IMG/VR virus record: IMGVR_UViG_3300022542_000792 | Location: 1-64,000 of that record | Origin: a virus | Reading direction: 5' to 3' (one strand) | DNA length: 64,000 nucleotides | Part shown: positions 8,800 to 61,167 of the stretch, piece after piece | Numbering within the stretch: the first letter of the stretch is position 1 | Layout: every line of letters starts with the position of its first letter | Program-made: the position numbers and the translations under genes | The notes under the pieces: generated by a model | Databases searched by the model: none | Told to the model about the DNA's origin: nothing | What the model saw: only the letters and a program-made list of their open reading frames with translations

Positions 8800-11136
8800 T
8801 TACGTTATTAAGAACTCAACAACTGCCCCTGATGGGACTGCTGTTCTGAATACGATAGCATATGCGATTATACCTGCTGATGCTTGAATATACGATATTG
8901 AAGGTGAACCAACAAGGTCAGCCTCATAATAAGCACCATCGTTTGTTACTTGTGTGATGTCTCCTGGATAGTCAGGGAAAATATTATTATAATCATATAT
9001 AGGCAAACTAACAGTTGCACCGACAGCACCCATTGCAGTAAATAAATCAACATCTGTGATGCTTATTGCTGAACCGTTTCCTGAAGTATCTGAGAACACA
9101 AAAATACCAACCCAACGAGGATCATATATTGCTGTTGCTCCTGTTACTTGAGCATTAATTTGGTCTATGATATCCTGAACTGTTTGTACTTGCGATCCCG
9201 TAACATTTACAGTTTGAGGAGTTTGTGGACTACCAGTTGCTTGTCCATCAACTGCAACAGTAAATGAATATGCTGTCGCATCATCTGGCAAACCAGTTGC
9301 TGCAGTTGGTGAAACGTTAAACTCTCTTCTAAAATATATTGTTTGACGAGCACGCTGATCGGCATATTGTTTAATACCATTTATAAATACTTGCAATCTA
9401 TTAAATCCAGAAATATATTCTTCATCATTATCAATTAAGAATTCTGTTTGTGGTGCAACTGGACGATGAATTTGTTGTAATATTATTTGATTACCAAGTT
9501 CTCTTGAAGTTTTACTACCTATTTCTGAACTAAGTTGCTCAACTATAACATCAATCGTAGTGTCAAGTTGTTGTGGACTACCACCTGGAACAAGTGCATC
9601 ACGTAATACTGAATCAACTACAGTATGTGTTACATCAGTTGATGGATGAGTATGACTCAAGTCTACTTGTATAGGAACTGGAAGTGGCGAACCACCATCA
9701 GATGTTTGAAGATCTAATTGATAGATTGATGAATCCCAAGCTGCACTAATTAATACACCATCAGCTCCACCAAGAGCATAAGTGGCAATAGCTTGGTGTA
9801 CAAAACTACAGGTTGCAATTTGTGTCGTGGTGTTCGTAGCAGGTGTTGCTGTTGGCGCTATAGGTGTTCCAGTTAATGATGGAGAAGCAAGAGGAGCTGC
9901 ACCAGCCACATCCGCAATTAATATATTTCTATTTTTCCATTGTCCTGCTGGACTACCAACATTGTCATAATATAAAAATTCATCGTGCGATGGAGTAGGT
10001 ACATAAACATCTAATAAATCATCTATTGAAGCTGGAGTTCCTCCTGATACAATAGCTACCACATCATCAACATATTTTTTGGAGGCTGCTGCAGTATCAC
10101 CAGATGGAAGAGCTGGAAGTCCAAGAACTTCATTGTTACTCTGTATTTGAATATTACCAGCAAATGTGCTTGTATCATCAGCATCCGAAACACCAACAGT
10201 TAATACTGTCACCCCTACAGAATTCTTAACTACAAAACTACTAAAAAGGGAGTTGCCAGATTGCATCTCCCAAGTAAATCCGTCTGAACTTAATATTAGT
10301 GTTGCACCATCTGCAAGTGGAGAGCCAGCAACATTCCCTATCAAACCTTTTGTTGCATCAATATTAATATTTGCACCAGTCATTGTTAAATCACCAGTCA
10401 TTGTATCACCAGTTTGGAGAACATAGTTTCCACCTGATGATGCCCACATACTTCCATTCCAAACTTTTAAATCGGTGTTTGCAGTATCATACCACAAGTC
10501 ACCATCAACGGGGGAAGTAGGTGCTGTAGTAGATGCAAATGTGCTACTGGTTACAGAAACCCAAGCTTCGCCATTGTACACTTTAAGAGATTTTTCAGGA
10601 GTGGCATTTAACGTTATTGGATCAGTACTTCCATTAGAACCCGAGTGAAGAACTGTTACCCATGTGTTGGTTAAAGGATGGTCAGTGATAAGTACTCGTC
10701 TTTTAAGAGTTAAATTAAGAGTATCAAACCAATATATTCCATCAGCGACTGCACCTGGATCGGTGCCTTTAGCGTATGTTACTGTTAATGAATCCCAACT
10801 AGACGTACTATCATTCCAACGATACCAACCAGAAGTAGTTAAAGTGGTTTGCCAATATTCTCTTCGTGAAAACCAAACTTGCCCAGAAATTGGGAGTACA
10901 GGAACTGTTGCTCCAGAGAAATTTTCAAGTAGATGAAGAACGTTTTCAGCGATTCGTTCGCCGTAATTTGCAGAGCCCCTTCCGTATATTAGTAAACTTG
11001 TATCAGCACTAACTGCAGATGAATCAAGTTGCCCAGAGATTGGGAATGTACGACCATTTGCCGTATATGGGCTAACTATAAACGAAGACTTAGATGGGTC
11101 CGTAAAATGTATAATGTACTGTTCTGGTTGAGCCAT
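8800..11136 (-). CDS. Tail fibre-like protein, 778 aa
   Basis: Paralogue of the 507- and 330-residue proteins: N-terminal SLLIYGRGSANYGERIAENV, HLLENFSG, GQVWFS. Residues about 90-230 hold Trp/Tyr repeats (GIYWFDTLNLTLK, GDLWYDTANTDLKVWNGSMW), then VLQTGDTMTGDLTMTG and AASKKYVDDV, both fibre signatures. Residues about 608-705 carry the VDG...INAQVTG...ITDVDLF module also found in gp18 and gp13, after an LQVFINGIKQ segment. A late promoter (11167) and GAGGAAG ribosome site precede it. Likely a long fibre; host-receptor contact is inferred. Confidence 0.75.
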   Translation of the reverse strand: MAQPEQYIIHFTDPSKSSFIVSPYTANGRTFPISGQLDSSAVSADTSLLIYGRGSANYGERIAENVLHLLENFSGATVPVLPISGQVWFSRREYWQTTLTTSGWYRWNDSTSSWDSLTVTYAKGTDPGAVADGIYWFDTLNLTLKRRVLITDHPLTNTWVTVLHSGSNGSTDPITLNATPEKSLKVYNGEAWVSVTSSTFASTTAPTSPVDGDLWYDTANTDLKVWNGSMWASSGGNYVLQTGDTMTGDLTMTGANINIDATKGLIGNVAGSPLADGATLILSSDGFTWEMQSGNSLFSSFVVKNSVGVTVLTVGVSDADDTSTFAGNIQIQSNNEVLGLPALPSGDTAAASKKYVDDVVAIVSGGTPASIDDLLDVYVPTPSHDEFLYYDNVGSPAGQWKNRNILIADVAGAAPLASPSLTGTPIAPTATPATNTTTQIATCSFVHQAIATYALGGADGVLISAAWDSSIYQLDLQTSDGGSPLPVPIQVDLSHTHPSTDVTHTVVDSVLRDALVPGGSPQQLDTTIDVIVEQLSSEIGSKTSRELGNQIILQQIHRPVAPQTEFLIDNDEEYISGFNRLQVFINGIKQYADQRARQTIYFRREFNVSPTAATGLPDDATAYSFTVAVDGQATGSPQTPQTVNVTGSQVQTVQDIIDQINAQVTGATAIYDPRWVGIFVFSDTSGNGSAISITDVDLFTAMGAVGATVSLPIYDYNNIFPDYPGDITQVTNDGAYYEADLVGSPSISYIQASAGIIAYAIVFRTAVPSGAVVEFLIT

Positions 11137-11248: not shown

Positions 11249-12241
11249 TTATGAGTATTGTGCAGGGAATATTATGTTCCAAGTACTAAACGCATATATT
11301 TTTATTTGTGTGTTGAGTGAATCAACCCAAATATCACCATCTTTTGCAGTACCAGGTGTGCTTGATGAAGTTGTTATCAACGGCTTGGCATCAACGTATG
11401 CTTTTGTGGCAGCGTGCAATGTGTTTGTCGGAGCGCCAGAAAGTGTAAGTGCACCCGTCATTGTACTGCCAGCTTTTGCAACTTTTGCATCCAATTGTGT
11501 TTGTATGCTTGAGGTTACACCACTAATATCTGTTGATATTAATCCTCTATTTTCCCAAGTAGTCCCATTGAAATATAAAACCTCACCAGTTACAGCAGAT
11601 GATGTTACATCATCTTCAACATCTGACAATTCCCATAATTCATTATTACTACTGATTAATCCATCAACATATTCTTTAGAAGCTGCTCCAGTTGCAGATG
11701 GTGACGCTGGTAATCCAAGAACTTCACCACCTCCAGCAAATGTAATGTTAGCAGCAGAGTCCATCGTATCACCAGATTTCAATACATAGTGATCAGCTGT
11801 TGATGTCCAAACCATTGCATAATATACTTTAAGTTGAGTTGCGACCGTATCAAACCACAAATCCCCATCTTGTGGATTTGGTGGTGCGGTAGCTGATGAG
11901 AAAACACCACCAGCAGAAACCCAGTTAGTCCCATCAAACATCATTAATTTATTGGTAGTTGAGTTAAACCATAGTTGTCCTTTTACAGAATATGCTGGAT
12001 CAAAAAATGCTGGATCTGGTGCTGTTGTTGCAGGGCTTCCACCCAATTCAGGACTTGCGAAATTTTCTAATATCTTGAGGAAATTTTCATTTACGCCTTC
12101 GCCATATTGTAGAGAACCTGCGCCATATAAACGAAGATTGGTATTTTGTGTTACAGATCCTGGTCCGTCTAGCTTGTTCGGACTGATTCTAAAATTGCCA
12201 TTCGCTGGATCTGTGTGGTCAATGATGTAAATGGCTGTCAT
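11249..12241 (-). CDS. Tail fibre-like protein, 330 aa
   Basis: Shortest of the three fibre paralogues. It has TNLRLYGAGSLQYGEGVNEN and ILENFASPE at the N-terminus, then KGQLWFNSTTNKLMMFDGTN and DGDLWFDTVATQLKVY repeats, YVLKSGDTMDS, AGSTMTGALTLSG and HAATKAYVDAKP, and ends with another DGDIWVDSLNTQIKIY repeat. It is the first gene of the fibre block, with late promoters at 12289 and 12330 and a terminator after it, so it forms its own late unit. Probably a short fibre or adhesin. Confidence 0.75.
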   Translation of the reverse strand: MTAIYIIDHTDPANGNFRISPNKLDGPGSVTQNTNLRLYGAGSLQYGEGVNENFLKILENFASPELGGSPATTAPDPAFFDPAYSVKGQLWFNSTTNKLMMFDGTNWVSAGGVFSSATAPPNPQDGDLWFDTVATQLKVYYAMVWTSTADHYVLKSGDTMDSAANITFAGGGEVLGLPASPSATGAASKEYVDGLISSNNELWELSDVEDDVTSSAVTGEVLYFNGTTWENRGLISTDISGVTSSIQTQLDAKVAKAGSTMTGALTLSGAPTNTLHAATKAYVDAKPLITTSSSTPGTAKDGDIWVDSLNTQIKIYAFSTWNIIFPAQYS

Positions 12242-13843: not shown

Positions 13844-14099
13844 TATTATTCTCCATTATACTCATTGCGTTTTCGAATCGTTCTTCTATTGATTTATCAC
13901 CCACATATGATGCATCAGGTATAAGTGTAATTTCTAGTGTTACCTTAGGAGTTTCTCCCATAGGAACACGTATAGAACGCCCATCCATCGTTTGCTCATC
14001 TGCATAAGATTTCTCAAATCTTATATCTGTGCTTGTAATCAACGCATCAAATCCAAAATTTTTAATATATGATTTAAAATCATCTAAAGATGTTATCAT
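13833..14099 (-). CDS. Hypothetical protein, 88 aa
   Basis: Not recognised. Alpha/beta protein with a VTLEITLIPDASYVGD strand region. The ATG overlaps the TAA of the upstream gene by one base and its own 3' end overlaps the next gene by 11 bases, so it is clearly part of the gp44 operon. Confidence 0.6.
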   Translation of the reverse strand: MITSLDDFKSYIKNFGFDALITSTDIRFEKSYADEQTMDGRSIRVPMGETPKVTLEITLIPDASYVGDKSIEERFENAMSIMENNNGT

Positions 14100-14725
14100 T
14101 ATTCTATCCCCTTCATTGCTCGTTCAAAAGCTGTTTTTTGATTCGTATCATGATATACTGACTCAACAAACGACTTTGGTTCGTTAGATGTTGCAGCGAA
14201 TGTTCCCATTTCTGTTTCTTTCCAACCACCGTTTCGTATTGCTGCGTTTGTTGTCTGAGTATTCTCCAATCCTGCAAGTTGCTTTTCTGTCTTTTCTGTA
14301 GGAATACCCATTGACATTGATTTTTCTAATTTTTCCCTAAAGTACCTAATGTCTTCGCCTATATCCAAGGCTTGTCTACTTGGTAATGTTTCGATATGAG
14401 AACCTCTGCCTTTTACAGGATGTGGGAATGTGAAATCCTCAACTATGGGATGTGGATCATATCCTTTTGTGACTCTTGTGTCTGCATCCAATTGTTTAAT
14501 TATTTCATCACACGAATATCCTAAATCTTCTGGAGTCCAACGTTTTGTAATATGTGGAAGTGTGAAGTCTTCAGTAGTTGACTGGTTATCTAATATTTTT
14601 GTATTCAAATCATTAACTGCACGTAACCTTCTTTTAAGCTCATCAATTTCTTCCAACATTTCAAACCTTTTTGTTCTCAACTCATCGATTTCTTCCTGCA
14701 TCGTTATTAGATTTTTATTATTCAT
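14099..14725 (-). CDS. Early protein with coiled coil and portal-protein (gp20) fragment, 208 aa
   Basis: Residues 8-45 form a coiled coil (EEIDELRTKRFEMLEEIDEL). Residues 106-133 (GRGSHIETLPSRQAL, then IRYFREKL) closely match residues 319-346 of this phage's own portal (GRGSRVETLPGGQGL, then LEYFQDKV), including at the DNA level. Two near-copies, EDFTLPHITKR and EDFTFPHPVKG, precede it. The function is unknown. It sits directly after gp44 in an early operon, where a portal fragment has no obvious role: it could be a decayed gp20 remnant or a protein that competes with portal contacts. Confidence 0.65.
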   Translation of the reverse strand: MNNKNLITMQEEIDELRTKRFEMLEEIDELKRRLRAVNDLNTKILDNQSTTEDFTLPHITKRWTPEDLGYSCDEIIKQLDADTRVTKGYDPHPIVEDFTFPHPVKGRGSHIETLPSRQALDIGEDIRYFREKLEKSMSMGIPTEKTEKQLAGLENTQTTNAAIRNGGWKETEMGTFAATSNEPKSFVESVYHDTNQKTAFERAMKGIE

Positions 14726-45541: not shown

Positions 45542-47653
45542 TTAAATCTCAGCGCCTGATGCAACAACGCGTATTGGTACGTAGATAAATTCAGCTGCTT
45601 TGACTGGCTTAATAGCCACATCAATATACATTTCGTTTCTGTCTATACGGTCAGGTGTGTTATTTGATTCATCACAAACTGTTGCGAAATCATATAAACC
45701 ACGTTTAACCACTATGTCTCCCAAGAATCCATCAACGACAGCTTTAAGATTGTCACGGGTTAATTGGTCATTTGGTTCGAATACGAATGCAAGTGTATTT
45801 TTACGCAATTGACGCTTAATGTACATTACAAGACGTGAAACATTTACACGGTCAAGAGCACTTGCGTCAGATGCTGATGTCTTCTGTCCCCAGATAAGAA
45901 TACCACGACCAGGGAAGAATGCAATCGGATTAACGTTTGTGAAGTATTTGTATAAATCATCACGTTGACCTTGATTAACATGCAATGCATTAAATGTTGT
46001 TGCAGTTCCAAGTTCACCTGAAACATAACCAACATCAGTAAGACCAGTAACAAGACCACGACGTGTTCCTGCTGGTGCAAACCATAATTGACTTACTTCA
46101 TCACTAAATGCATATGTGCGAAGTGCTGTTCCACTTGCTGCAATGAATACATTCTTTCCATCAATATTTGATGCAAGTCCATGAGGATAGTAATAAGCAA
46201 CATTTGTAGATGATTGACGAGCTGGTGTTCCAGCCCATGCAACTACTTCAGATGCTGTCATATCCATTGGCGTATCTGCGATAACAAATGCTTCACCACT
46301 AATATCAGCAGAAAGTGCTAACATTTCATCAACTACTTCATGATATCCAGGGCAAAGAATTAAATTAAATTCAAAGTTTTCAGAACGTACTTCTGTATTA
46401 GCATTCATTGTTCCTTGAAGTGCTGTAACTATTGCTGCACGACGTGCAGTATCATTAGCACCAAGGCTTGTAAGATTTCTAAACTCAGCAGTAAACTTAA
46501 AGTTGTCTGCTGCATTAGTAAGAGATGTTGTAGCTTCTGCAGGAGACCATTCTGTAGGGGTTGGACTTCCACTACCACCAGCAACCCAAGCTGCTACATC
46601 ACCTTCAAAACCAAGATATGTACCAGTAGCTGCTTGTGAATAACCATTTCCATAAACTGGAAGAGCAACATCAATTGTAACACCGTTAACTGGAAGTGAA
46701 AATGAAACAAAACCATTTAAGTTTGCGAATAATGCTGTAGCTCCTGATCCGTCTGTAATACTGATTGTTGAAGCAGCACCTTCTAATGTACTTGTAATTA
46801 CAATATTATCAGCTTGTGGAGAGCCACCTGGAGTTAAAGATGCAACTGCACCTGTAAGGTCAGTGTTTATTGCTGCCAATAAAGCTGTCCAAGTTGTTGC
46901 ATCTGATCCAGAGAAGGAAATATTATTTACCGTACCATCAACTGTAACCGTAGCTGTATAAGTAGTACCACCAACAAGGCCAGGATCAGCACCAACATCA
47001 GTAATGCTGTTACCCATATCAACGACTTGGATACCACTTGTGCTTGCAGCAGGAATACCATTATCATCAAAGAAGTCTGTTTCAAGACCTGAGAAAGTTG
47101 CTAAGTCCCAAATATCTGTTGTTGCATCATTAGCAAGAGAAACTATCTCTGCTGCTGTTACTGTTGTTCTGAAACCAGGATCGGTTGTAACAAAACCATT
47201 TGTATTATTGTATTCGTCAAGTAATGCTTGTGCAAGAATTGCAATAGTTGTTCCTGCAGTAACAATTTTGGAATCCCATCGGGTACGTAATGTTACAGTG
47301 TCATCATCAAGATTGACATTTGCACGGACTACATAAGCTCTATTACCTAAACCAAGGAATTGGTTTAATCCAAATAGGCCGTATTCATTTCTTGCATCAC
47401 CGTGTTGAGCATTTCCACTAGAATCTTCAAGGAAGCTTGGAACACCATATAATTCAAGACTCTGTTTCAGAGACGTTACTGTGCGAACAACATCGTGTTC
47501 ATATGTGCCAGCAGCAGGTGTAGTTCCATCAATTTGAACTTTTTCATCAGCTGTTGCAACAAAAATTAGAGGGACAGTGGATGCGGCCGCTGGGATGAAG
47601 AAACTTTCATCTGTTACCGTTACACTTACACCTGGACTTACTAATGTAGCCAT
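45542..47653 (-). CDS. 18: Contractile tail sheath protein gp18
   Basis: 703 residues (T4 gp18 659). N-terminus VSPGVSVTVTDESFFIPAAA, SLKQSLELYGVPSF and GNRAYVVRANV, with C-terminal RGILIWGQKTSASDASALDR, VNVSRLVMYIKRQLRKNTLA, FVFEPNDQLTRDNLKAVVDG and YIDVAIKPVKAAEFI, are the sheath core. Residues about 230-316 are an inserted VDGTVNNISFSGSDATTWTA / ISITDGSGATALFANLNGF module also found in gp13 and a tail fibre, presumably surface-exposed decoration of the sheath. Confidence 0.93.
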   Translation of the reverse strand: MATLVSPGVSVTVTDESFFIPAAASTVPLIFVATADEKVQIDGTTPAAGTYEHDVVRTVTSLKQSLELYGVPSFLEDSSGNAQHGDARNEYGLFGLNQFLGLGNRAYVVRANVNLDDDTVTLRTRWDSKIVTAGTTIAILAQALLDEYNNTNGFVTTDPGFRTTVTAAEIVSLANDATTDIWDLATFSGLETDFFDDNGIPAASTSGIQVVDMGNSITDVGADPGLVGGTTYTATVTVDGTVNNISFSGSDATTWTALLAAINTDLTGAVASLTPGGSPQADNIVITSTLEGAASTISITDGSGATALFANLNGFVSFSLPVNGVTIDVALPVYGNGYSQAATGTYLGFEGDVAAWVAGGSGSPTPTEWSPAEATTSLTNAADNFKFTAEFRNLTSLGANDTARRAAIVTALQGTMNANTEVRSENFEFNLILCPGYHEVVDEMLALSADISGEAFVIADTPMDMTASEVVAWAGTPARQSSTNVAYYYPHGLASNIDGKNVFIAASGTALRTYAFSDEVSQLWFAPAGTRRGLVTGLTDVGYVSGELGTATTFNALHVNQGQRDDLYKYFTNVNPIAFFPGRGILIWGQKTSASDASALDRVNVSRLVMYIKRQLRKNTLAFVFEPNDQLTRDNLKAVVDGFLGDIVVKRGLYDFATVCDESNNTPDRIDRNEMYIDVAIKPVKAAEFIYVPIRVVASGAEI

Positions 47654-47722: not shown

Positions 47723-48487
47723 TTATGGTAAATTTATGTCATCTAAACTGAACCAGTTCTCATAATCTATCCCTTGCTCATTGAGTTCATCAATCATTTC
47801 CTGATTTGTCAATGAGTCCTGACTGACTGCTCCAACGCGGACATATATGTCTTTGATGTAGTCATCTCGGAGATTTGCTGGTGCCGAGATATACACAGGA
47901 AAGTTGAATGATAATGTAGAAATTATCATTCTTCGGTCAGTTCCAGTAGGATAACTCTGGTCAAAATTGATTCCATCCAATTCAACTGTTGTTAATTTTG
48001 TCCAGTCAAAAATACCATCACTGGTTTGAATTTGCACCGTTGGGTCAAAAATCATTAATATTTGTTCTAAAATTTGAAAGTGTTGGTCAGAGTTACTTGC
48101 ATAAATTGCCACTTCTGCTTGCATCCTATATGGAATTGGCATATACTGATGAACTGTTTTGATACCATCAGGAAATACTTCACCTCTTGGTAAGTATGAT
48201 TGACGACGAGTTTGGCCTATCCCTTTTCTTAATTCAGGAGCAAGTTGAAAATTGTTTAAATATGCACTCAGCATAGGCAGACGCAATGGTTTATTTTGCG
48301 TGTTATCACCAATGATATGCGCTACAACTCTGTCCTTATTCCCATACTGGATAGGTACCGTTATTAACTGTTCTTCATCAGAATCAGCGTTTTTTCCAAT
48401 GCTTGCTTGCAGTCCAGCAAAGATAGCCATAAATTGTGTTAGGTGTTTTTTGCACTGTTGGTTGTAATAAAAGTTTGCAATTGCCAT
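47723..48487 (-). CDS. 15: Tail completion / sheath stabiliser gp15
   Basis: 254 residues (T4 gp15 272). ANFYYNQQCKKHLTQFMAIF at the start, TVPIQYGNKDRVVAHI, QYMPIPYRMQAEVAIYASN, QHFQILEQILMIFDPTVQIQ and LSFNFPVYISAP align with T4 gp15 in order. It forms a hexameric ring on the tail end that joins to the neck. It follows the gp14-like gene by 9 bases. Confidence 0.88.
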   Translation of the reverse strand: MAIANFYYNQQCKKHLTQFMAIFAGLQASIGKNADSDEEQLITVPIQYGNKDRVVAHIIGDNTQNKPLRLPMLSAYLNNFQLAPELRKGIGQTRRQSYLPRGEVFPDGIKTVHQYMPIPYRMQAEVAIYASNSDQHFQILEQILMIFDPTVQIQTSDGIFDWTKLTTVELDGINFDQSYPTGTDRRMIISTLSFNFPVYISAPANLRDDYIKDIYVRVGAVSQDSLTNQEMIDELNEQGIDYENWFSLDDINLP

Positions 48488-48496
48488 AATTTATCC

Positions 48497-50050
48497 TCAA
48501 ATATCTTCTGAAGGTGTTTTAGTTGTTGATGATAAGAATTGTTGTAAAATTGGTTTAGTTTGGTTATACTGTTCTCTCTTATCTGTTTCAAGATAGACCC
48601 AACGATTTTTAGCAGTTGAATATCTATATAATCTTGGTGGAATATCTTCAGCCAATCCGGTGTATGTTAATCTATGATAATCACCCTCTGCAAATGTTTC
48701 AGGGAATGAATCACCTTCAGTATATGCTTCATCATTAGGTGGTAGACCATCTTCAACATATAATCCTTTTGAATTTAATCCGATTTTGCTTAAATTCGGT
48801 ACTCCTTGGTCAGCAGCAGATTGGAGTTCTTCGGCAGAAAATTCTTGAACATCAAGTGGGTCACTACCACGTTCAGCTAAATCCGTTGATGCTTCTGCTT
48901 CAATTGATTGACTAACATTAGAAATATCTTGGAAGATAGGATGATTTCCATCATCTATTCCAACCAATCCTGATGCATCAGGTGTTGAATTAAATCCACC
49001 AAATATGTCTTGTGTTTCTTGTGACGCCATCATTGGTTGAGCAATAATTCTTTGCATCGTTGGTTGCCATCCAGGTGTATACCCTTCTGTACTCCAACCT
49101 ACATCTGTTACTTCAAGGAACTTCTTAATTGGTTCCATTGTTGCCGAGTATTGAGTTTCACTTGGAACTTCAAAAATATCACCAATAACAATTGGTCGGC
49201 CAAGTGCTGTGACAACTGCATTAAAACTCATATGCATATAATATTGTTGATTTGGAAGTTCAATACCAAATCTTGAAAGTTCAGTTTGTATATCAATTAA
49301 ATCATATGTGCCTTTAATCGTAGTACTTTCTGAAGCGTACTCTCTGTCTCTATTTTCTAAAAATATATCATCTTGAATATCGTCAATAGATGTTTCATCA
49401 TAATCCATTAACTGTAATGCTTGGATAATCCAACGGTCACTAACACCACCATTAAAATCAATTGGACGAAGTCTCCAAAAACGAGATGGTACAGAATGTT
49501 TAAAATGTATAACATTTAAGTTATCGTCATCTGGAAGGGTAAGAATAGAAACACCATACCAAGTTATTCCGTCTTTAGACCGTTCTACACGAACACGTGT
49601 CGCTCTGTTTTCAGAGTTAGGACCTTGCATAATTTTAATCGTTGCAATGTTATGGTTTATAGATGTATCAATACCATAACGCTGACGTTCATTTTCAAGT
49701 TTGATTTCGCCAAAGTCATAACCAATATAAGATGTTAATGGAACATTACTTCCAGTTTGTGAAGAACGCCATTGTGTAACGAATGCATCAAAAGCTTGGC
49801 TCGCAGGAAAGTTGGAAGCATTGCCTCCTGCGATTGGAGTACCATTTCCAACTAAGTCAACAAGTTGTCCTTGTTCGTGTACACCTAAAAGTTTGAAAAC
49901 GTGAATGTCAGCGGCACCGATGTTGAGATTTTCCTCAACGACACCATCAATAAAACAAGAATCATTATTTTGTGTTAATTGAAACGGAGAGCAAGAATTG
50001 TCCCTTGTTTCAAGACATTTGGTTCCATCTGGTTTATCTTCGCAACTCAT
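48497..50050 (-). CDS. 14: Neck protein gp14-like with discoidin (F5/8C)-like insertion
   Basis: 517 residues, about twice T4 gp14 (256). Four Cys lie in the first 32 residues (MSCEDKPDGTKC, NSC, DSC). Residues about 50-215 look like an F5/8 type C (discoidin) domain: FPASQAFDAFVTQWRSSQTG, SYIGYDFGEIK, VRVERSKDGITWYGV, PSRFWRLRPIDFNG. Residues about 265-350 (FNAVVTALGRPIVIGDIFEV, FLEVTDVGWSTEGYTPGWQP, ASQETQDIFG) match a neck-protein segment I recall from T4-like phages. The C-terminus is acidic. The gp14 call leans on position between gp13- and gp15-like genes. Confidence 0.55.
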   Translation of the reverse strand: MSCEDKPDGTKCLETRDNSCSPFQLTQNNDSCFIDGVVEENLNIGAADIHVFKLLGVHEQGQLVDLVGNGTPIAGGNASNFPASQAFDAFVTQWRSSQTGSNVPLTSYIGYDFGEIKLENERQRYGIDTSINHNIATIKIMQGPNSENRATRVRVERSKDGITWYGVSILTLPDDDNLNVIHFKHSVPSRFWRLRPIDFNGGVSDRWIIQALQLMDYDETSIDDIQDDIFLENRDREYASESTTIKGTYDLIDIQTELSRFGIELPNQQYYMHMSFNAVVTALGRPIVIGDIFEVPSETQYSATMEPIKKFLEVTDVGWSTEGYTPGWQPTMQRIIAQPMMASQETQDIFGGFNSTPDASGLVGIDDGNHPIFQDISNVSQSIEAEASTDLAERGSDPLDVQEFSAEELQSAADQGVPNLSKIGLNSKGLYVEDGLPPNDEAYTEGDSFPETFAEGDYHRLTYTGLAEDIPPRLYRYSTAKNRWVYLETDKREQYNQTKPILQQFLSSTTKTPSEDI

Positions 50051-50062
50051 TAATATATCCTA

Positions 50063-50305
50063 TTAATCTTCTACAGCTTTTATAATTTTTATTGCTTCAA
50101 TTAAATCTTTTCGTTGTTCTACTGCCCATTTTTGAAATTCTTTAGGATCATCTAAATGTTTATCCATTTCCTTTATACCATCAACCATACGTTGAAGAGC
50201 AGATAGAGCTATTCTCTTAATTTGTTGCTTACCAGAAACTTTTCCTTGTAACTTTCGTTTAATATCTGATGCAATACTTTCATCAAGTACATTATTCAAC
50301 TTCAT
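50063..50305 (-). CDS. Hypothetical basic helical protein, 80 aa
   Basis: Not recognised. Lys-rich helices (IKRKLQGKVSGKQQIKRIAL, DLIEAIKIIKAVED). Overlaps the cupin gene by 14 bases. Located inside the neck operon; assembly factor or DNA-contacting minor virion protein by context only. Confidence 0.6.
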   Translation of the reverse strand: MKLNNVLDESIASDIKRKLQGKVSGKQQIKRIALSALQRMVDGIKEMDKHLDDPKEFQKWAVEQRKDLIEAIKIIKAVED

Positions 50306-50771
50306 TTTCTTTCTCCGGTTTCGTTTCGTTTACTGTTCCATCTTCATGTTGTGGTGGTGAGTATAATGCATACAATTTTAAATCTTCTGTATCAGAAGTA
50401 TTAATGACATTATGTAAAGCTCCTTCTGGAACTACAACAGCATCACCATCTGTTACTGTTGTTTCCTTACCATCAATAATCATTTTACCTTCACCTTCTT
50501 CAAAGCGAAAGAATTGGTCACCTTCGTGAGTTTCTTCACCAATATCTTCACCAGGTTCCAAGCTCATTAATACGAGTTGAGTCATTTCAGTCGTAAACAA
50601 AACTTTTCTGAAATTATCATTTTCAATAGTATCTTGTTCAATATTGATTTGAAAACCACCACCATCTTCTTCATTCTCTGGAGAATACTCTTCTGGATTG
50701 CCAGCATCGGCATAAGCAATTCCTATATCCGAAGCAGGCATTTCTTTTAATATTTCTTTTAATAGTGACAT
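50292..50771 (-). CDS. Cupin-domain protein, 159 aa
   Basis: Residues about 40-145 are a single cupin barrel: MSLEPGEDIGEETHEGDQFF (motif 1, G(X)5HXH-like with E and H ligands), GEGKMIIDGKETTVTDGDAV, and VVVPEGALHNVINTS (motif 2, G...H...N). Metal ligands are plausible but motif 1 has one His rather than two. The N-terminal about 35 residues are acidic. Enzymatic cupins act on small molecules or sugars; here, between gp13 and gp14, it may instead be a virion decoration or assembly protein. Confidence 0.75.
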   Translation of the reverse strand: MSLLKEILKEMPASDIGIAYADAGNPEEYSPENEEDGGGFQINIEQDTIENDNFRKVLFTTEMTQLVLMSLEPGEDIGEETHEGDQFFRFEEGEGKMIIDGKETTVTDGDAVVVPEGALHNVINTSDTEDLKLYALYSPPQHEDGTVNETKPEKENEVE

Positions 50772-50775
50772 TATA

Positions 50776-53649
50776 TTATCCTACAATAAAGGTTGTTGCA
50801 ATTCCAAAATCTTCAACTGTATTAACAATAAAGTTATCAAGTTGTTCATAACATTCTGCCATATCAGTTTCTGCTCTTGCAATAAGCTCACCTGCGTTAA
50901 GAGATACACCACCACCAGCACCTGGAAGTGAAGCATATTTACCACGAATTTCAGCAAGCATAAGACGAGCTTGTGCAGATGCATATTTTTCAATCCAAGA
51001 TTTAGTCCAACGATCAGTTAATAATTCTTGTTCTGTTCTTTCAATTGACGCATCAATAAGAATTCTTTCATCATAACCAAATGTCTGATAGAAATTTAGT
51101 TGACGTGTTTGTTCATTCCATTGGAACACTAAACGAGTAGCAAACATATCTTCCAATGTTTCAATATATGATGCAACAAGATGATAACTCAATAAATCAA
51201 ATGTTCCCATTGTATATAGATGTTGTATAACTGTCTGTCCAAAAATACCACCTTCATATGCTGTAGTTAAGAATGCAGAATTTGTTCTGTATGCAGCCAT
51301 AACTGTAACAATTTTATTAAACCCAACGGTTTTATTTGTTAATCGTAGTGATTGTTGACCTGCAGGGACATCAACAAAGAAAAATGCGCGACGATAAGCA
51401 GCAGCACTTCGTTTGCGTAATGATTCCAATCCAGCTGTGATTGCTGTATCCAACTGATATTTTGTAAGTTCAACTTGAACAACTGGATAACCAAGCTGTG
51501 CACGAATACTATCCATTAGTTCTCGTCTTTCATCTGGAGTACCATCATCACCAACACCAATTTGTTGATATTGAGGAGTAGGATCTACCCCATCTGTTCC
51601 AGCTACATAATCTACAAGTCCAGTAAATCCAGCAAGAGAATCAAACAAATCAACATCAGTTAAAATGATTGAAGAAGTGCTACCTGTCGTAGAGCTTGTG
51701 AATAAAAGATTACCATCAGATGTTAATTCAACAATAGCAGCGTGTACTGAAGCAACATATGCTACTCCATTCCATTCATTAAGAATTTCATTAATTGTAT
51801 CATACCATAGAGAACCAGTTGCTGGTGTTAATGGTAGAGTTGTAAATAACGCTGATACCCAAGAAACACCATTCCATTGATTCAAAGCAGTATTTGTTGT
51901 ATCAAACCAAAATATACCAGTCGCTGGTGTATGTGGTGCTGCAGTTGCATCTACAGGATTAAATGCTACCCAAGTACCTGGTGAACCAGCTCGTTCATAC
52001 CAAATATTATTTGTTGTGTCAAACCAAACATCTCCAGTGCTAACAATAGTTGGATCTGTTAAGCTATTAATAAATGTAACAGCTACCCACATTGAACCAT
52101 CCCAACGATTTAGAGTAGTTGCTATTGTATTATACCAAACATCTGCAGTCGTCATTGTTGGTGGCGATGCTGGGTCTGTTGCTTGTTGTAAGAATGTAGT
52201 AACTAAGTCCCAAGATGATGTAGTGACATCCCAAACATAAAGGTTATCTCCAACAGAATCCCACCACAACCCACAAGAGTCACGATTTGTTGGATCGTCG
52301 GCTAATGATAATACTGTTAGGTCTGTCCAAGAAGTATTTGTTACATCACGTTGTTTTAATTCTTCTGTAGTAGGATTATACCAATAATTATTTGGTGCAG
52401 GTAATGTTGGTTCTGTTGAACTTATAGTAGCTGTTAAAGTATCCCATGACGCTCCATTCCACTGCTTAAGAACATTATTTGTTTCATCAAACCAGTATGT
52501 ACCAACCGTTAAACTATTCGGATCCACATTCCAATAAATTGCATCAACATCATTCCAACTATTGGTTTGATCATTCCACTGATGGAGGAGTAAACTTACA
52601 CTATCGTACCAATATGTTCCGAATGTTGGATATGTTGGAAGTGTTGGATCAGTCGCCTGGTTCCATAAAGTTTTTTCACACCATGTGTTGCCTTCCCAAA
52701 TATACGCATTTGTTTCATTGAACCAATAATCATTTCCATCAAGAGCTGTTGGATCTTGACTATACGTTGTGAATGTTTGAGTTACCCAACTTAAAGGCGA
52801 GCCACTCCATTTTGAAAGAATAAGTGTTGTCGGGTTGTACCAATAATCTCCAGCACTTGGAGAATTAGGAGCTGAGGATTCTACGATGACGGTTACTTCA
52901 ACGTGTTGTGTTCCATCCCATTGGAATAATTCTTCAGTAGTTGCATTCCAATAATATGCACCAGTATTAGGTGATGTTGGTCCTTGAGGAGGATTGTTGA
53001 CTTTCCCAATACTCTTTGCTATTTCTGTTACGAGTTGATCATACGATGGAGTATTTGTTCCATCAACTGTTACTGAATATTCTGTGCCATCAATATCAAT
53101 AGTAAATGTATAGTCTACACCAGTTGATAAACCTGTATTATCAGTCCCTGCGACTCCTAATGTTGCTACTTGGTAACCAGCAACTGGACTTACTTCATTA
53201 CCACCGACATAATCCAACGCATAAGCGTGAACGCCTTCTATATGATAACGATAAAGTTTATCAACAGCAAAACCAGAAACATACACAGCCATTTCAGCTG
53301 TTAATCCTGTTACATCAAAAAATGTTGTTGTTTTGTCATCATACAATGCACTAATAACAAGAGATGTACCAATTTTATCACCAGCGTGTAGATTTGAGTC
53401 ACCAGTTGGGTCAGCTGTATATACTGTTCCGTTGACTGGACTTTTGTCAGGAGAGGTGTGCGTGGTATCAAGTGTAACAATAATACCATTATATGCTTGG
53501 TCATCTGCAGAACAACCTGACGCTGGATTTGGAATATCCCAAGATATACGACCGGATGTTGGTCCAGTTCTCGTAAATCTAATTGTTATTTCCTGACCTT
53601 CTGTGCGAATTTGAAAGGGACTGTCAGCGGATGAATCAAATGTTCCCAT
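50776..53649 (-). CDS. 13: Neck protein gp13-like with 11-repeat N-terminal insertion, 957 aa
   Basis: The C-terminal core (about 690-957; T4 gp13 is 309) matches neck proteins: DERRELMDSIRAQLGYPVVQ, LTKYQLDTAITAGLESLRKR, GTFDLLSYHLVASYIETLED, WTKSWIEKYASAQARLMLAE and IRGKYASLPGAGGGVSLNAG. Residues 1-155 look Fn3/Ig-like. Residues 178-216 and 637-678 are the two halves of one VDG...DVDLF module, split by residues 217-636, which hold 11 repeats of 'G.YWYD..T..L.QWNG..W'. The same repeats occur in tail fibres of this phage. Late promoter at 53679. The insertion suggests neck-borne whiskers or adhesins. Confidence 0.7.
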   Translation of the reverse strand: MGTFDSSADSPFQIRTEGQEITIRFTRTGPTSGRISWDIPNPASGCSADDQAYNGIIVTLDTTHTSPDKSPVNGTVYTADPTGDSNLHAGDKIGTSLVISALYDDKTTTFFDVTGLTAEMAVYVSGFAVDKLYRYHIEGVHAYALDYVGGNEVSPVAGYQVATLGVAGTDNTGLSTGVDYTFTIDIDGTEYSVTVDGTNTPSYDQLVTEIAKSIGKVNNPPQGPTSPNTGAYYWNATTEELFQWDGTQHVEVTVIVESSAPNSPSAGDYWYNPTTLILSKWSGSPLSWVTQTFTTYSQDPTALDGNDYWFNETNAYIWEGNTWCEKTLWNQATDPTLPTYPTFGTYWYDSVSLLLHQWNDQTNSWNDVDAIYWNVDPNSLTVGTYWFDETNNVLKQWNGASWDTLTATISSTEPTLPAPNNYWYNPTTEELKQRDVTNTSWTDLTVLSLADDPTNRDSCGLWWDSVGDNLYVWDVTTSSWDLVTTFLQQATDPASPPTMTTADVWYNTIATTLNRWDGSMWVAVTFINSLTDPTIVSTGDVWFDTTNNIWYERAGSPGTWVAFNPVDATAAPHTPATGIFWFDTTNTALNQWNGVSWVSALFTTLPLTPATGSLWYDTINEILNEWNGVAYVASVHAAIVELTSDGNLLFTSSTTGSTSSIILTDVDLFDSLAGFTGLVDYVAGTDGVDPTPQYQQIGVGDDGTPDERRELMDSIRAQLGYPVVQVELTKYQLDTAITAGLESLRKRSAAAYRRAFFFVDVPAGQQSLRLTNKTVGFNKIVTVMAAYRTNSAFLTTAYEGGIFGQTVIQHLYTMGTFDLLSYHLVASYIETLEDMFATRLVFQWNEQTRQLNFYQTFGYDERILIDASIERTEQELLTDRWTKSWIEKYASAQARLMLAEIRGKYASLPGAGGGVSLNAGELIARAETDMAECYEQLDNFIVNTVEDFGIATTFIVG
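51742..53001. repeat. Array of 11 Trp/Tyr coding repeats in gp13
   Basis: Eleven diverged units of about 38-40 residues, cores such as GTYWFDETNNVLKQWNGASW, GDVWFDTTNNIWYE and GSLWYDTINEILNEWNGVAY (minus strand). Confidence 0.85.
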
Positions 53650-59568: not shown

Positions 59569-61167
59569 TTAAAGTTCTCCACCAAGTTCTCCACCACCAA
59601 GTTCTCCACCAAGTTCTCCACCAGCAGTCATCTCTCCTCCACCCATCTCTCCACCCATCTCTGCAGCAGCGGCTGCAGCTTCAGGTTGGTACAGTGCTAG
59701 AAGATCTTTTTCATTACCATCTGGATCAAGTCCTTTCTCTTCACGAAGTTTACGTTCATTATCAATAATTTCATCATCAGTAAGTTGTAAATAACGTTCA
59801 AGAATGAAACGTTTAGAAAGATATGGAATACCATCAGCACTACCATATGCAGATAATAATGCAGCATCTACTTCTTGTTGTCGGTATGTACCAAAGTTAG
59901 TAGGTTCTGGTAAACGAATTCTATAAAGAGTTTCATCAATGCGGATGTTAGTTTTTTGGAGATATTTTTTAAATTCCGTATCAAGGATATTTTCAATGTG
60001 TCCTTGAAGTCGCATTACATATAATGCAAATTTGAATTCTTCAATATATGCGACACCTACTTTACCGTCATTGAATACTGCACCTTCTGCTCCTTTTTTC
60101 ATATAAGAAACAGGAACACGTAAGCCTCTCCAAACTTTATCTTGGAAGTATTCTAAGTCAGCAAGTTCACCAAGACCTTGTCCACCAGGTAATGTTTCTA
60201 CACGAGAACCTCGACCATCTGCACGTTGGGCAAAAAAGAAATCTTCTGACATTGATTGAGGATTATATACTGATTCAACTTCACTTTTTCCACCAGATTG
60301 GGTAGGAATTTTTTTCTGTTTGATTTCGTTCTTGATTTGTTCAAGATATGTTTTAACACGTTGAGGAGGCATCTTACCAACATCAATATAGAATACTCGA
60401 CGTTCAGGAGCACGTTGTACACGATAGATAAGGATAGCATCTTCTAATAATTCTTTTTGTTTGTGAGCACGGAATACTGGACGAAGAACAGATTCTCCAA
60501 ATGGAGCTGTATCAGATAAGTCATCGTTTAAAGTAAACCGAACAATTTCATCTGCAGAAATAATTTCTGTTTCAGTTTCTTGTGTCCCTGTAACAGGAGC
60601 ACCATATGAAGATTTAGCTTTTGTTATACTCTTTTTTACTTGCCACCCAATGATATTTGTCACATCATCTTCTTCAACGATGGCACCAATTATATTTTTA
60701 GGATGTAAAAATGCCCAACGTTTAAAATGGTCTTCTTGTTTACGAAAGAAACAATCACCATATTTGGCTGTTGTGCGTGAAACTTTGAACAGACGATTTT
60801 CCCAATCATGAGATTTGCACCAATGATGCATTGCAGCCCGAAGAGTAAGGACAATGTTACTTGGTAATTTTTCTTCATCTTCAGCAAGAATATCAAGTTC
60901 CAGTGGCATATCTGTCTTTGGATTATTACCTGTCATTTCTTCAGCTATTGTATCAAGTGCACGAGATACTTCAACATCATTATCCATTAAATCATATTCA
61001 CGGTAACGAGTTAAACGTGAAGCTGACCCTTGAACTAGTCGAGAGTACCAAGTGTAGTTACCATATGTCCCTTGATCACCAAGAGACTGGCTATCAGAAA
61101 TCTTGGTAGTTTCAGGCTTCGGTGTTACGATTTTAAAATAGTTGGTCCACTTTGGATTCTGGGTCAT
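59569..61167 (-). CDS. 20: Portal vertex protein gp20
   Basis: 532 residues (T4 gp20 524). Seen: YREYDLMDNDVEVSRALDTI, DTIAEEMTG, AFLHPKNIIGAIVEEDDVTN, FGESVLRPVFRAHKQKELLE, DAILIYRVQRAPERRVFYID, VGKMPPQRVKTYLEQIKNEI, SMSEDFFFAQRADGRGSRVE and TLPGGQGLGELADLEYFQDK. It forms the dodecameric DNA gate and the docking site for terminase and neck. The C-terminus is an unusual Gly/Glu/Leu repeat (GGELGGELGGGELGGEL), not a T4 feature. Late promoter at 61192. Confidence 0.97.
   Translation of the reverse strand: MTQNPKWTNYFKIVTPKPETTKISDSQSLGDQGTYGNYTWYSRLVQGSASRLTRYREYDLMDNDVEVSRALDTIAEEMTGNNPKTDMPLELDILAEDEEKLPSNIVLTLRAAMHHWCKSHDWENRLFKVSRTTAKYGDCFFRKQEDHFKRWAFLHPKNIIGAIVEEDDVTNIIGWQVKKSITKAKSSYGAPVTGTQETETEIISADEIVRFTLNDDLSDTAPFGESVLRPVFRAHKQKELLEDAILIYRVQRAPERRVFYIDVGKMPPQRVKTYLEQIKNEIKQKKIPTQSGGKSEVESVYNPQSMSEDFFFAQRADGRGSRVETLPGGQGLGELADLEYFQDKVWRGLRVPVSYMKKGAEGAVFNDGKVGVAYIEEFKFALYVMRLQGHIENILDTEFKKYLQKTNIRIDETLYRIRLPEPTNFGTYRQQEVDAALLSAYGSADGIPYLSKRFILERYLQLTDDEIIDNERKLREEKGLDPDGNEKDLLALYQPEAAAAAAEMGGEMGGGEMTAGGELGGELGGGELGGEL
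59571..59660. repeat. GGEL/GGEM coding repeats at the portal C-terminus
   Basis: Tandem 'agttctccacc' units encode GGEL repeats on the minus strand, preceded by EMGGEMGGGEM. Confidence 0.8.

What the first reader, a model, noticed from the sequence alone, without database searches (positions are those of the whole stretch)
50776..53649. Neck protein gp13 carries 11 Trp/Tyr repeats nested inside another domain
Residues 178-216 (IDIDGTEYSVTVDGTNTPSY) and 637-678 (LLFTSSTTGSTSS, then IILTDVDLFDSLAGFTG) are the two halves of a module that is continuous in gp18 and in the 778-residue fibre. Between them sit 11 copies of a 'YWYD..T..L.QWNG..W' unit typical of tail fibres. An insertion within an insertion on a neck protein about three times the usual length suggests an adhesive or decorative structure on the neck, acquired by domain shuffling.
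Basis: seen in the sequence. Interest (0 to 1): 0.65.

Follow-up and report, generated by a model that had tools for sequence, protein, structure and literature searches.

The report
Folded-back repeat arm on phage neck
A protein that joins head to tail in a lineage of giant phages carries a long extra arm of (almost always) eleven tryptophan-rich repeats looped out of another small domain, and evolutionary covariation indicates that this arm folds back on itself like a hairpin, a design I found no description of for a phage neck.

Summary
The ORF at 50776-53649 (-) is a gp13-type neck protein (PHROG 211, head-tail adaptor Ad2; residues 704-794 match T4 gp13 6-96). Its ~250-residue core follows a ~700-residue N-terminal extension: an FN3-like domain, then a flagellin-IN-like module cut in two by 11 Trp-rich repeats of ~38 residues. 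A profile built only from uninterrupted modules (gp18, the 778-aa fibre) finds the two gp13 halves in order.

The array is not a recent acquisition. In 135 distinct gp13 sequences the extension is either absent or ~680-990 residues; 93 of 96 complete long forms, diverged to 44% core identity, carry 11 repeats. Exceptions have 13 or 15.

Cysteines covary perfectly or almost so between repeats 1 and 11, 3 and 7, 3 and 8, and between the two module halves. With cysteines excluded, couplings still concentrate on repeat pairs i+j=11-12 (corrected p about 0.004). Best reading: an antiparallel hairpin, apex at repeats 5/6, base rebuilt by the split domain, probably 12 rigid arms around the neck. An 11-bladed ring or a straight rod fits poorly. 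Function (brace or collar versus adhesin) is inferred, not shown. New variant of a known kind.

The parts
50776..53649 (-). gp13-type neck protein, 957 aa, long form
53200..53649 (-). residues 1-150: N-terminal beta domain, fibronectin-III-like by Foldseek, below Pfam detection for this protein
   Evidence: Foldseek of the full model matches FnIII domains (4wtx, prob 1.00); Pfam fn3 E 0.0026 in one of 15 relatives; low AF2 confidence
52993..53184 (-). residues 156-219: first half of flagellin-IN-like module (strands, then helix 203-215)
52879..52992 (-). repeat R1 (220-257), base of arm, covaries with R11/R10
52759..52878 (-). repeat R2 (258-297)
52654..52758 (-). repeat R3 (298-332) with Cys324
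52528..52653 (-). repeat R4 (333-374)
52417..52527 (-). repeat R5 (375-411), apex side; extra domains lie between R5 and R6 in L103, L241, L237
52300..52416 (-). repeat R6 (412-450), apex side; two extra repeats near here in L119 and L146
52180..52299 (-). repeat R7 (451-490) with Cys459, covarying with Cys324
52060..52179 (-). repeat R8 (491-530)
51943..52059 (-). repeat R9 (531-569)
51835..51942 (-). repeat R10 (570-605)
51739..51834 (-). repeat R11 (606-637), base of arm
51580..51738 (-). residues 638-690: second half of flagellin-IN-like module
50779..51546 (-). residues 702-957: gp13 core (T4 gp13 domains I-II equivalent; T4 fibritin-binding domain III absent)
46679..46987 (-). uninterrupted IN-like module in the tail sheath gp18 (residues ~223-325), comparison copy
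8986..9300 (-). uninterrupted IN-like module in the 778-aa fibre (residues ~613-717), comparison copy; Pfam Flagellin_IN E 8.6e-4, below cutoff

Best explanation
This is the head-tail adaptor gp13 of a XacN1-like jumbo phage lineage, carrying a permanent built-in neck arm. Each subunit has, N-terminal to the normal adaptor core, an FN3-like domain and a flagellin-IN-like domain. The loop after that domain's helix is replaced by 11 Trp-rich beta-meander repeats. The array runs out through R1-R5, turns at R5/R6 and returns through R7-R11, so that its two ends meet and the interrupted domain closes as one fold. Paired cysteines (R3-R7 in this phage; R1-R11, R3-R8, R3-R4 and half 1-half 2 in relatives) staple the hairpin. 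By homology to T4 there would be about 12 such arms. They must lie outside the channel and most likely form a rigid collar that braces the neck or carries fibres, the job that separate fibritin whiskers do in T4. Shown here: domain order, split module, copy number, conservation and covariation. Inferred: hairpin shape in three dimensions, twelvefold copy number, disulfide chemistry, collar function.
For: gp13 identity. Split module; both halves at pLDDT about 90-94 in a 541-residue model of mean 89.8; IN1-IN2 couplings 9 in the top 100 against 2.5 expected; Cys190+/Cys644 pair 13 both, 0 single, 77 neither, 4 shared tree events. Fixed copy number: 88 of 96 complete long forms have 11 by the automatic count, 93 after resolving split or degenerate repeats. 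Fold-back: Cys324/Cys459 79 both, 1 single, 10 neither, 7 shared events of 8 and 7, 6 of 6 independent pairs concordant; R1-R11 6/0/84 and R3-R8 10/0/80 with 3 and 4 shared events; without Cys columns, pairs with i+j=11-12 are 26 against 11.4 expected, max-statistic p about 0.004, column shuffle flat. Extra domains sit at the predicted apex in three relatives. Vertical inheritance: array-core r 0.84. T4 gp13 is a dodecamer whose domain III holds fibritin (PMC12270204), and that domain is absent here.
Against: No coordinates were available; pTM of the array model is only 0.48 and Foldseek gives no global match. Effective depth is about 80 sequences, so couplings beyond the cysteines are weak individually. 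Coevolution cannot by itself separate contacts within a chain from contacts between chains. In L121 the four extra repeats all fall between R2 and R3 by best-matching register, which a symmetric hairpin does not predict. Short-form jumbo phages also lack T4's domain III, so the arm is not a simple replacement for it. No virion proteomics or microscopy of this protein was found in the text of the XacN1 paper.
Confidence: 0.6

Rival explanations
1. The arm is an adhesin: twelve Trp-rich, carbohydrate-binding arms on the neck that hold the phage to host or environmental glycans.
For: FN3-like and Trp-rich repeat units are common in fibre-type proteins; the same repeat occurs in window fibre-like proteins at 11249-12241 and 8800-11136. 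The XacN1 authors saw no tail fibres and found no fibre homologues, yet report a wide host range (PMC5852040).
Against: The array diverges with the core (r 0.84) and keeps 11 repeats and 51 columns at 85% or more identity, mostly Trp, Pro and Gly; no swapping or copy-number variation of the kind usual in host-range adhesins was seen. No Pfam carbohydrate-binding match.
Confidence: 0.25
2. The 11 repeats close into an 11-bladed propeller-like ring whose ends meet at the split domain.
For: Fixed copy number, ends brought together (R1-R11 and IN1-IN2 covariation), repeats of 3-4 short strands, local Foldseek similarity to Kelch/WD40 blades.
Against: Foldseek TM at most 0.12 and rmsd about 25-58 A among listed hits. 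R3 covaries with R7 and R8, which would be across the ring. Couplings follow i+j=11-12, the pattern of two antiparallel rows. Lineages with 13 and 15 repeats exist.
Confidence: 0.08
3. The repeats form an extended flexible string; the covariation reflects contacts between neighbouring subunits in the ring.
For: pTM 0.48 with high local pLDDT suggests poorly defined inter-repeat placement.
Against: Parallel arms related by a rotation axis should give couplings with constant i-j, not constant i+j as seen. Copy number would not need to be fixed. The ends are locked together by the split module.
Confidence: 0.1
4. Phylogenetic artefact: the covarying cysteines and couplings are clade markers without structural meaning.
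For: Some cysteine pairs are just that: 521/657/774 change only one to three times on the tree.
Against: The five key pairs share 3-8 separate tree events with every event of the rarer site shared; 324/459 and 305/343 are concordant in all informative independent pairs; repeat relabelling and column shuffles do not reproduce the i+j pattern.
Confidence: 0.05

Closest known systems
T4 gp13 neck protein with fibritin (Wac) collar and whiskers
   Same: Homologous adaptor core; neck position; in T4 twelve gp13 subunits display twelve external appendages (PMC12270204)
   Different: T4 gp13 is 309 aa, its appendage is a separate coiled-coil protein bound through domain III; here domain III is absent and a 690-residue beta-rich arm is part of the N-terminus
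XacN1 ORF268 and RAS14 WAX21693.1 (PHROG 211 long members)
   Same: Same architecture end to end, 977 and 976 aa, about 39-40% identity
   Different: Annotated only as hypothetical proteins; extra cysteines in both module halves
Milano phage collar and neck 1
   Same: Neck enclosed by beta-rich collar domains and tied by disulfides; one collar domain resembles glycan-binding proteins (PMC10491603)
   Different: Collar is a separate small protein in four 15-mer rings; no repeat array and no split domain
Flagellin_IN (PF07196)-like modules in phage sheath and fibre proteins
   Same: Profile from gp18 and fibre copies matches both halves
   Different: Here split by 418 residues; gp13 itself is not hit by the Pfam model
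Beta-propeller repeat proteins (Kelch, WD40)
   Same: Short multi-stranded repeats of about 40 residues with Trp
   Different: No global structural match; covariation points to two antiparallel rows, not a ring

Membership tests
gp13 / head-tail adaptor Ad2 (PHROG 211) | Sequence homology of the adaptor core | tested here: met
   PHROG 211 E 4.6e-196; T4 gp13 profile match E 5e-10; Foldseek T4 gp13 E 1e-10, prob 1.00
gp13 / head-tail adaptor Ad2 (PHROG 211) | Gene context among capsid, tail sheath stabiliser, sheath and tube genes | tested here: met
   Portal at 59569-61167, gp15-type 47723-48487 (Pfam T4-gp15_tss), sheath 45542-47653
gp13 / head-tail adaptor Ad2 (PHROG 211) | Dodecameric ring between portal and gp14 | not testable with these tools
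   Known for T4 (PMC12270204)
T4 fibritin-carrying neck | gp13 domain III that binds fibritin | tested here: not met
   T4 stretch is a gap in long and short jumbo gp13
T4 fibritin-carrying neck | Fibritin gene in the genome | tested here: inconclusive
   No Fibritin_C match in XacN1, RAS14, L020, L010 or own record, but no control genome rang and several records are fragments
Flagellin_IN-like module | Sequence match of the halves to uninterrupted copies | tested here: met
   for this phage and close relatives; weak for half 2 in distant ones
Flagellin_IN-like module | Pfam PF07196 above its cutoff | tested here: not met
   No hit in gp13; 19.9 bits against cutoff 22.7 in the fibre copy
Beta-propeller | Closed ring of blades | tested here: not met
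   No global match to any propeller among listed hits; coupling pattern i+j constant
Fibronectin type III | Pfam fn3 match | tested here: inconclusive
   None in this protein; E 0.0026 in one relative; Foldseek FnIII prob 1.00

The most novel reading that the evidence does not exclude
A whole lineage of giant phages has a built-in neck collar of an undescribed protein architecture: a tandem-repeat hairpin with a fixed odd number of units (11, rarely 13 or 15), nested inside another domain and locked by covarying cysteine pairs, that does the job of separate whisker proteins.
Probability: 0.4. Interest if true: 0.75.

Novelty: new variant of a known kind. Interest (0 to 1): 0.6.

Why it matters
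Tandem-repeat arrays usually drift in number; this one is held at 11 across phages whose cores share as little as 44% identity, and covariation gives a geometric reason: the array must return to where it began for its host domain to fold. It is a clear natural case of a repeat array constrained by nesting. It also gives a concrete, testable model for a large unannotated part of the neck of XacN1-like jumbo phages, whose adsorption apparatus is unknown, and two cultured members (XacN1, RAS14) could be imaged directly.

Tried and rejected
Recent domain shuffling: rejected, extension all-or-none and vertical. Intermediates without the array: none among 135 cores; L092, L246, L058 and L059 looked short but the missing part lies just upstream behind a stop or frameshift. 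A 493-aa BFVD entry, A0A8D4KEF7, aligned over the whole model and might be a form without the array; it could not be traced. Eleven-bladed propeller: Foldseek gave only local blade similarity. Plain mutual information was dominated by clade signal; mean-field coupling with hub and cysteine filters was used instead. The i+j=11-12 window was first noticed in the unfiltered table, so a max-statistic over all windows was run. Identity of 48497-50050 as gp14 was not confirmed by profile comparison with T4 gp14. Genome contigs gave no relatives. Core-wide alignment including short forms was too diverged to scan with.

Full report
What is there. The reading frame 50776-53649 on the minus strand encodes 957 residues. 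It matches PHROG 211, head-tail adaptor Ad2, from end to end; that PHROG's profile is 976 positions long, about the length of the XacN1 protein, so the long form is in the database but I found no description of it. Pfam and NCBIfam have no significant model for it. Residues 704-794 match T4 gp13 residues 6-96, and Foldseek puts T4 gp13 first. The core (702-957) aligns with the short gp13s of RaK2, CBB, PA5oct, Atu_ph07 and others, which are about 244-267 aa. Everything before it is an N-terminal extension, not an insertion into gp13.

The split module. A profile built from the uninterrupted modules of gp18, the 778-aa fibre and a related gp18, without any gp13 sequence, finds gp13 in two ordered pieces: model 2-44 at residues 172-213 and model 62-96 at 647-677. 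Joined they reach 36.2 bits (40.8 and 42.3 in the two nearest relatives); 500 shuffles reach at most 8.2. AlphaFold2 on residues 155-695 with 13 sequences gives mean pLDDT 89.8, with both halves about 90-94. The cut falls after the module's helix.

The repeats. Eleven units lie at residues 220-637. Related cores were gathered from viral contigs: 135 distinct sequences. Their N-terminal extension is bimodal, 19 residues or fewer versus 676 or more; the few apparent exceptions (L092, L246, L058, L059) have the missing part just upstream. Of 96 complete long forms, 88 have exactly 11 repeats by the automatic count. L097 and L113 also come to 11 when degenerate units are counted (L113 by inference from an 83-residue gap), L103 and L241 have 11 plus a domain of 110-130 residues between R5 and R6, and L110 has 11 with an uninterrupted IN-like module inside R7. 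Only L119 and L146 (13) and L121 (15) differ; incomplete L115 has 15 and incomplete L117 has two extra. Additions are always even, but the independent events are few. The contigs and cultured phages with long forms include many of 270-385 kb, so this is a jumbo-phage lineage; the window's record is 68 kb, probably a fragment.

Fold-back. In 90 aligned long forms, Cys324 (R3) and Cys459 (R7) are both present in 79, both absent in 10 and single in 1. On a tree of the core alone they change 8 and 7 times, with 7 events shared and 6 of 6 independent pairs concordant, p 0.031. Four other pairs share all events of the rarer member: R3-R4 (8), R3-R8 (4), half 1-half 2 (4) and R1-R11 (3), out of 325 pairs tested. 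Pairs such as 521-657 change too few times and are set aside as clade markers. With all cysteine columns removed, mean-field couplings between non-adjacent repeats concentrate on i+j=11-12: 26 against 11.4 expected by relabelling repeats, corrected p about 0.004. The 10-12 range fixed by the cysteines gives 32 against 16.3, and column-shuffled controls are flat. This is the signature of two antiparallel rows with an apex at R5/R6. Contacts between rotationally related arms would instead give constant i-j. The extra domains of L103, L241 and L237 sit at that apex.

How it probably works. T4 gp13 forms a dodecamer around a channel 44-56 A wide and holds fibritin fibres through domain III (PMC12270204). 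Domain III is absent here and in the short jumbo forms. Twelve extensions of about 690 residues cannot fit in the channel (my volume estimate), so they must lie outside. The array diverges in step with the core (r 0.84) and keeps its Trp, Pro and Gly frame. I therefore favour a rigid collar or brace over a host-range adhesin, but the reported absence of tail fibres in XacN1 (PMC5852040) keeps the adhesin rival alive. The Milano phage shows that a beta-rich, disulfide-tied collar can add particle stability (PMC10491603). Whether the cysteines here form disulfides or bind metal is unknown.

Limits. No model coordinates or error matrix were available. pTM is 0.40-0.48. Effective alignment depth is about 80. 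Copy number in the virion, location and function rest on homology and inference.

Noticed in passing
window 14099-14725 (-): A 208-aa protein carries a stretch of T4 portal gp20 (Pfam Portal_T4 positions 245-307, 33 bits, above cutoff; GRGSHIETLP...) although the full portal gene is at 59569-61167.
   Followed up: partly
window 48497-50050 (-): A 517-aa virion structural protein beside gp13, in the place of gp14, has an F5/8 type C (discoidin) domain match at residues 123-201 (E 7e-4); gp14 identity not confirmed.
   Followed up: partly
window 50292-50771 (-): A 159-aa cupin-domain protein is encoded between the neck genes, also present in L001.
   Followed up: no
L092 3941-3943: A single in-frame TAA lies in the linker between the second module half and the gp13 core, separating arm and core into two frames: assembly error, recoding or a natural gene split.
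   Followed up: partly
L110 gp13 residues 556-641: A complete IN-like module (52.6 bits) is inserted inside repeat 7 of the array, which itself sits inside a split IN-like module.
   Followed up: partly
L119, L146, L121, L115, L117: All repeat-number exceptions gain two or four units, keeping the total odd where it can be counted.
   Followed up: partly
Foldseek BFVD hits: Proteins of the amoeba giant virus Orpheovirus IHUMI-LCC2 match the Trp repeats, suggesting a wider repeat family without a Pfam model.
   Followed up: no
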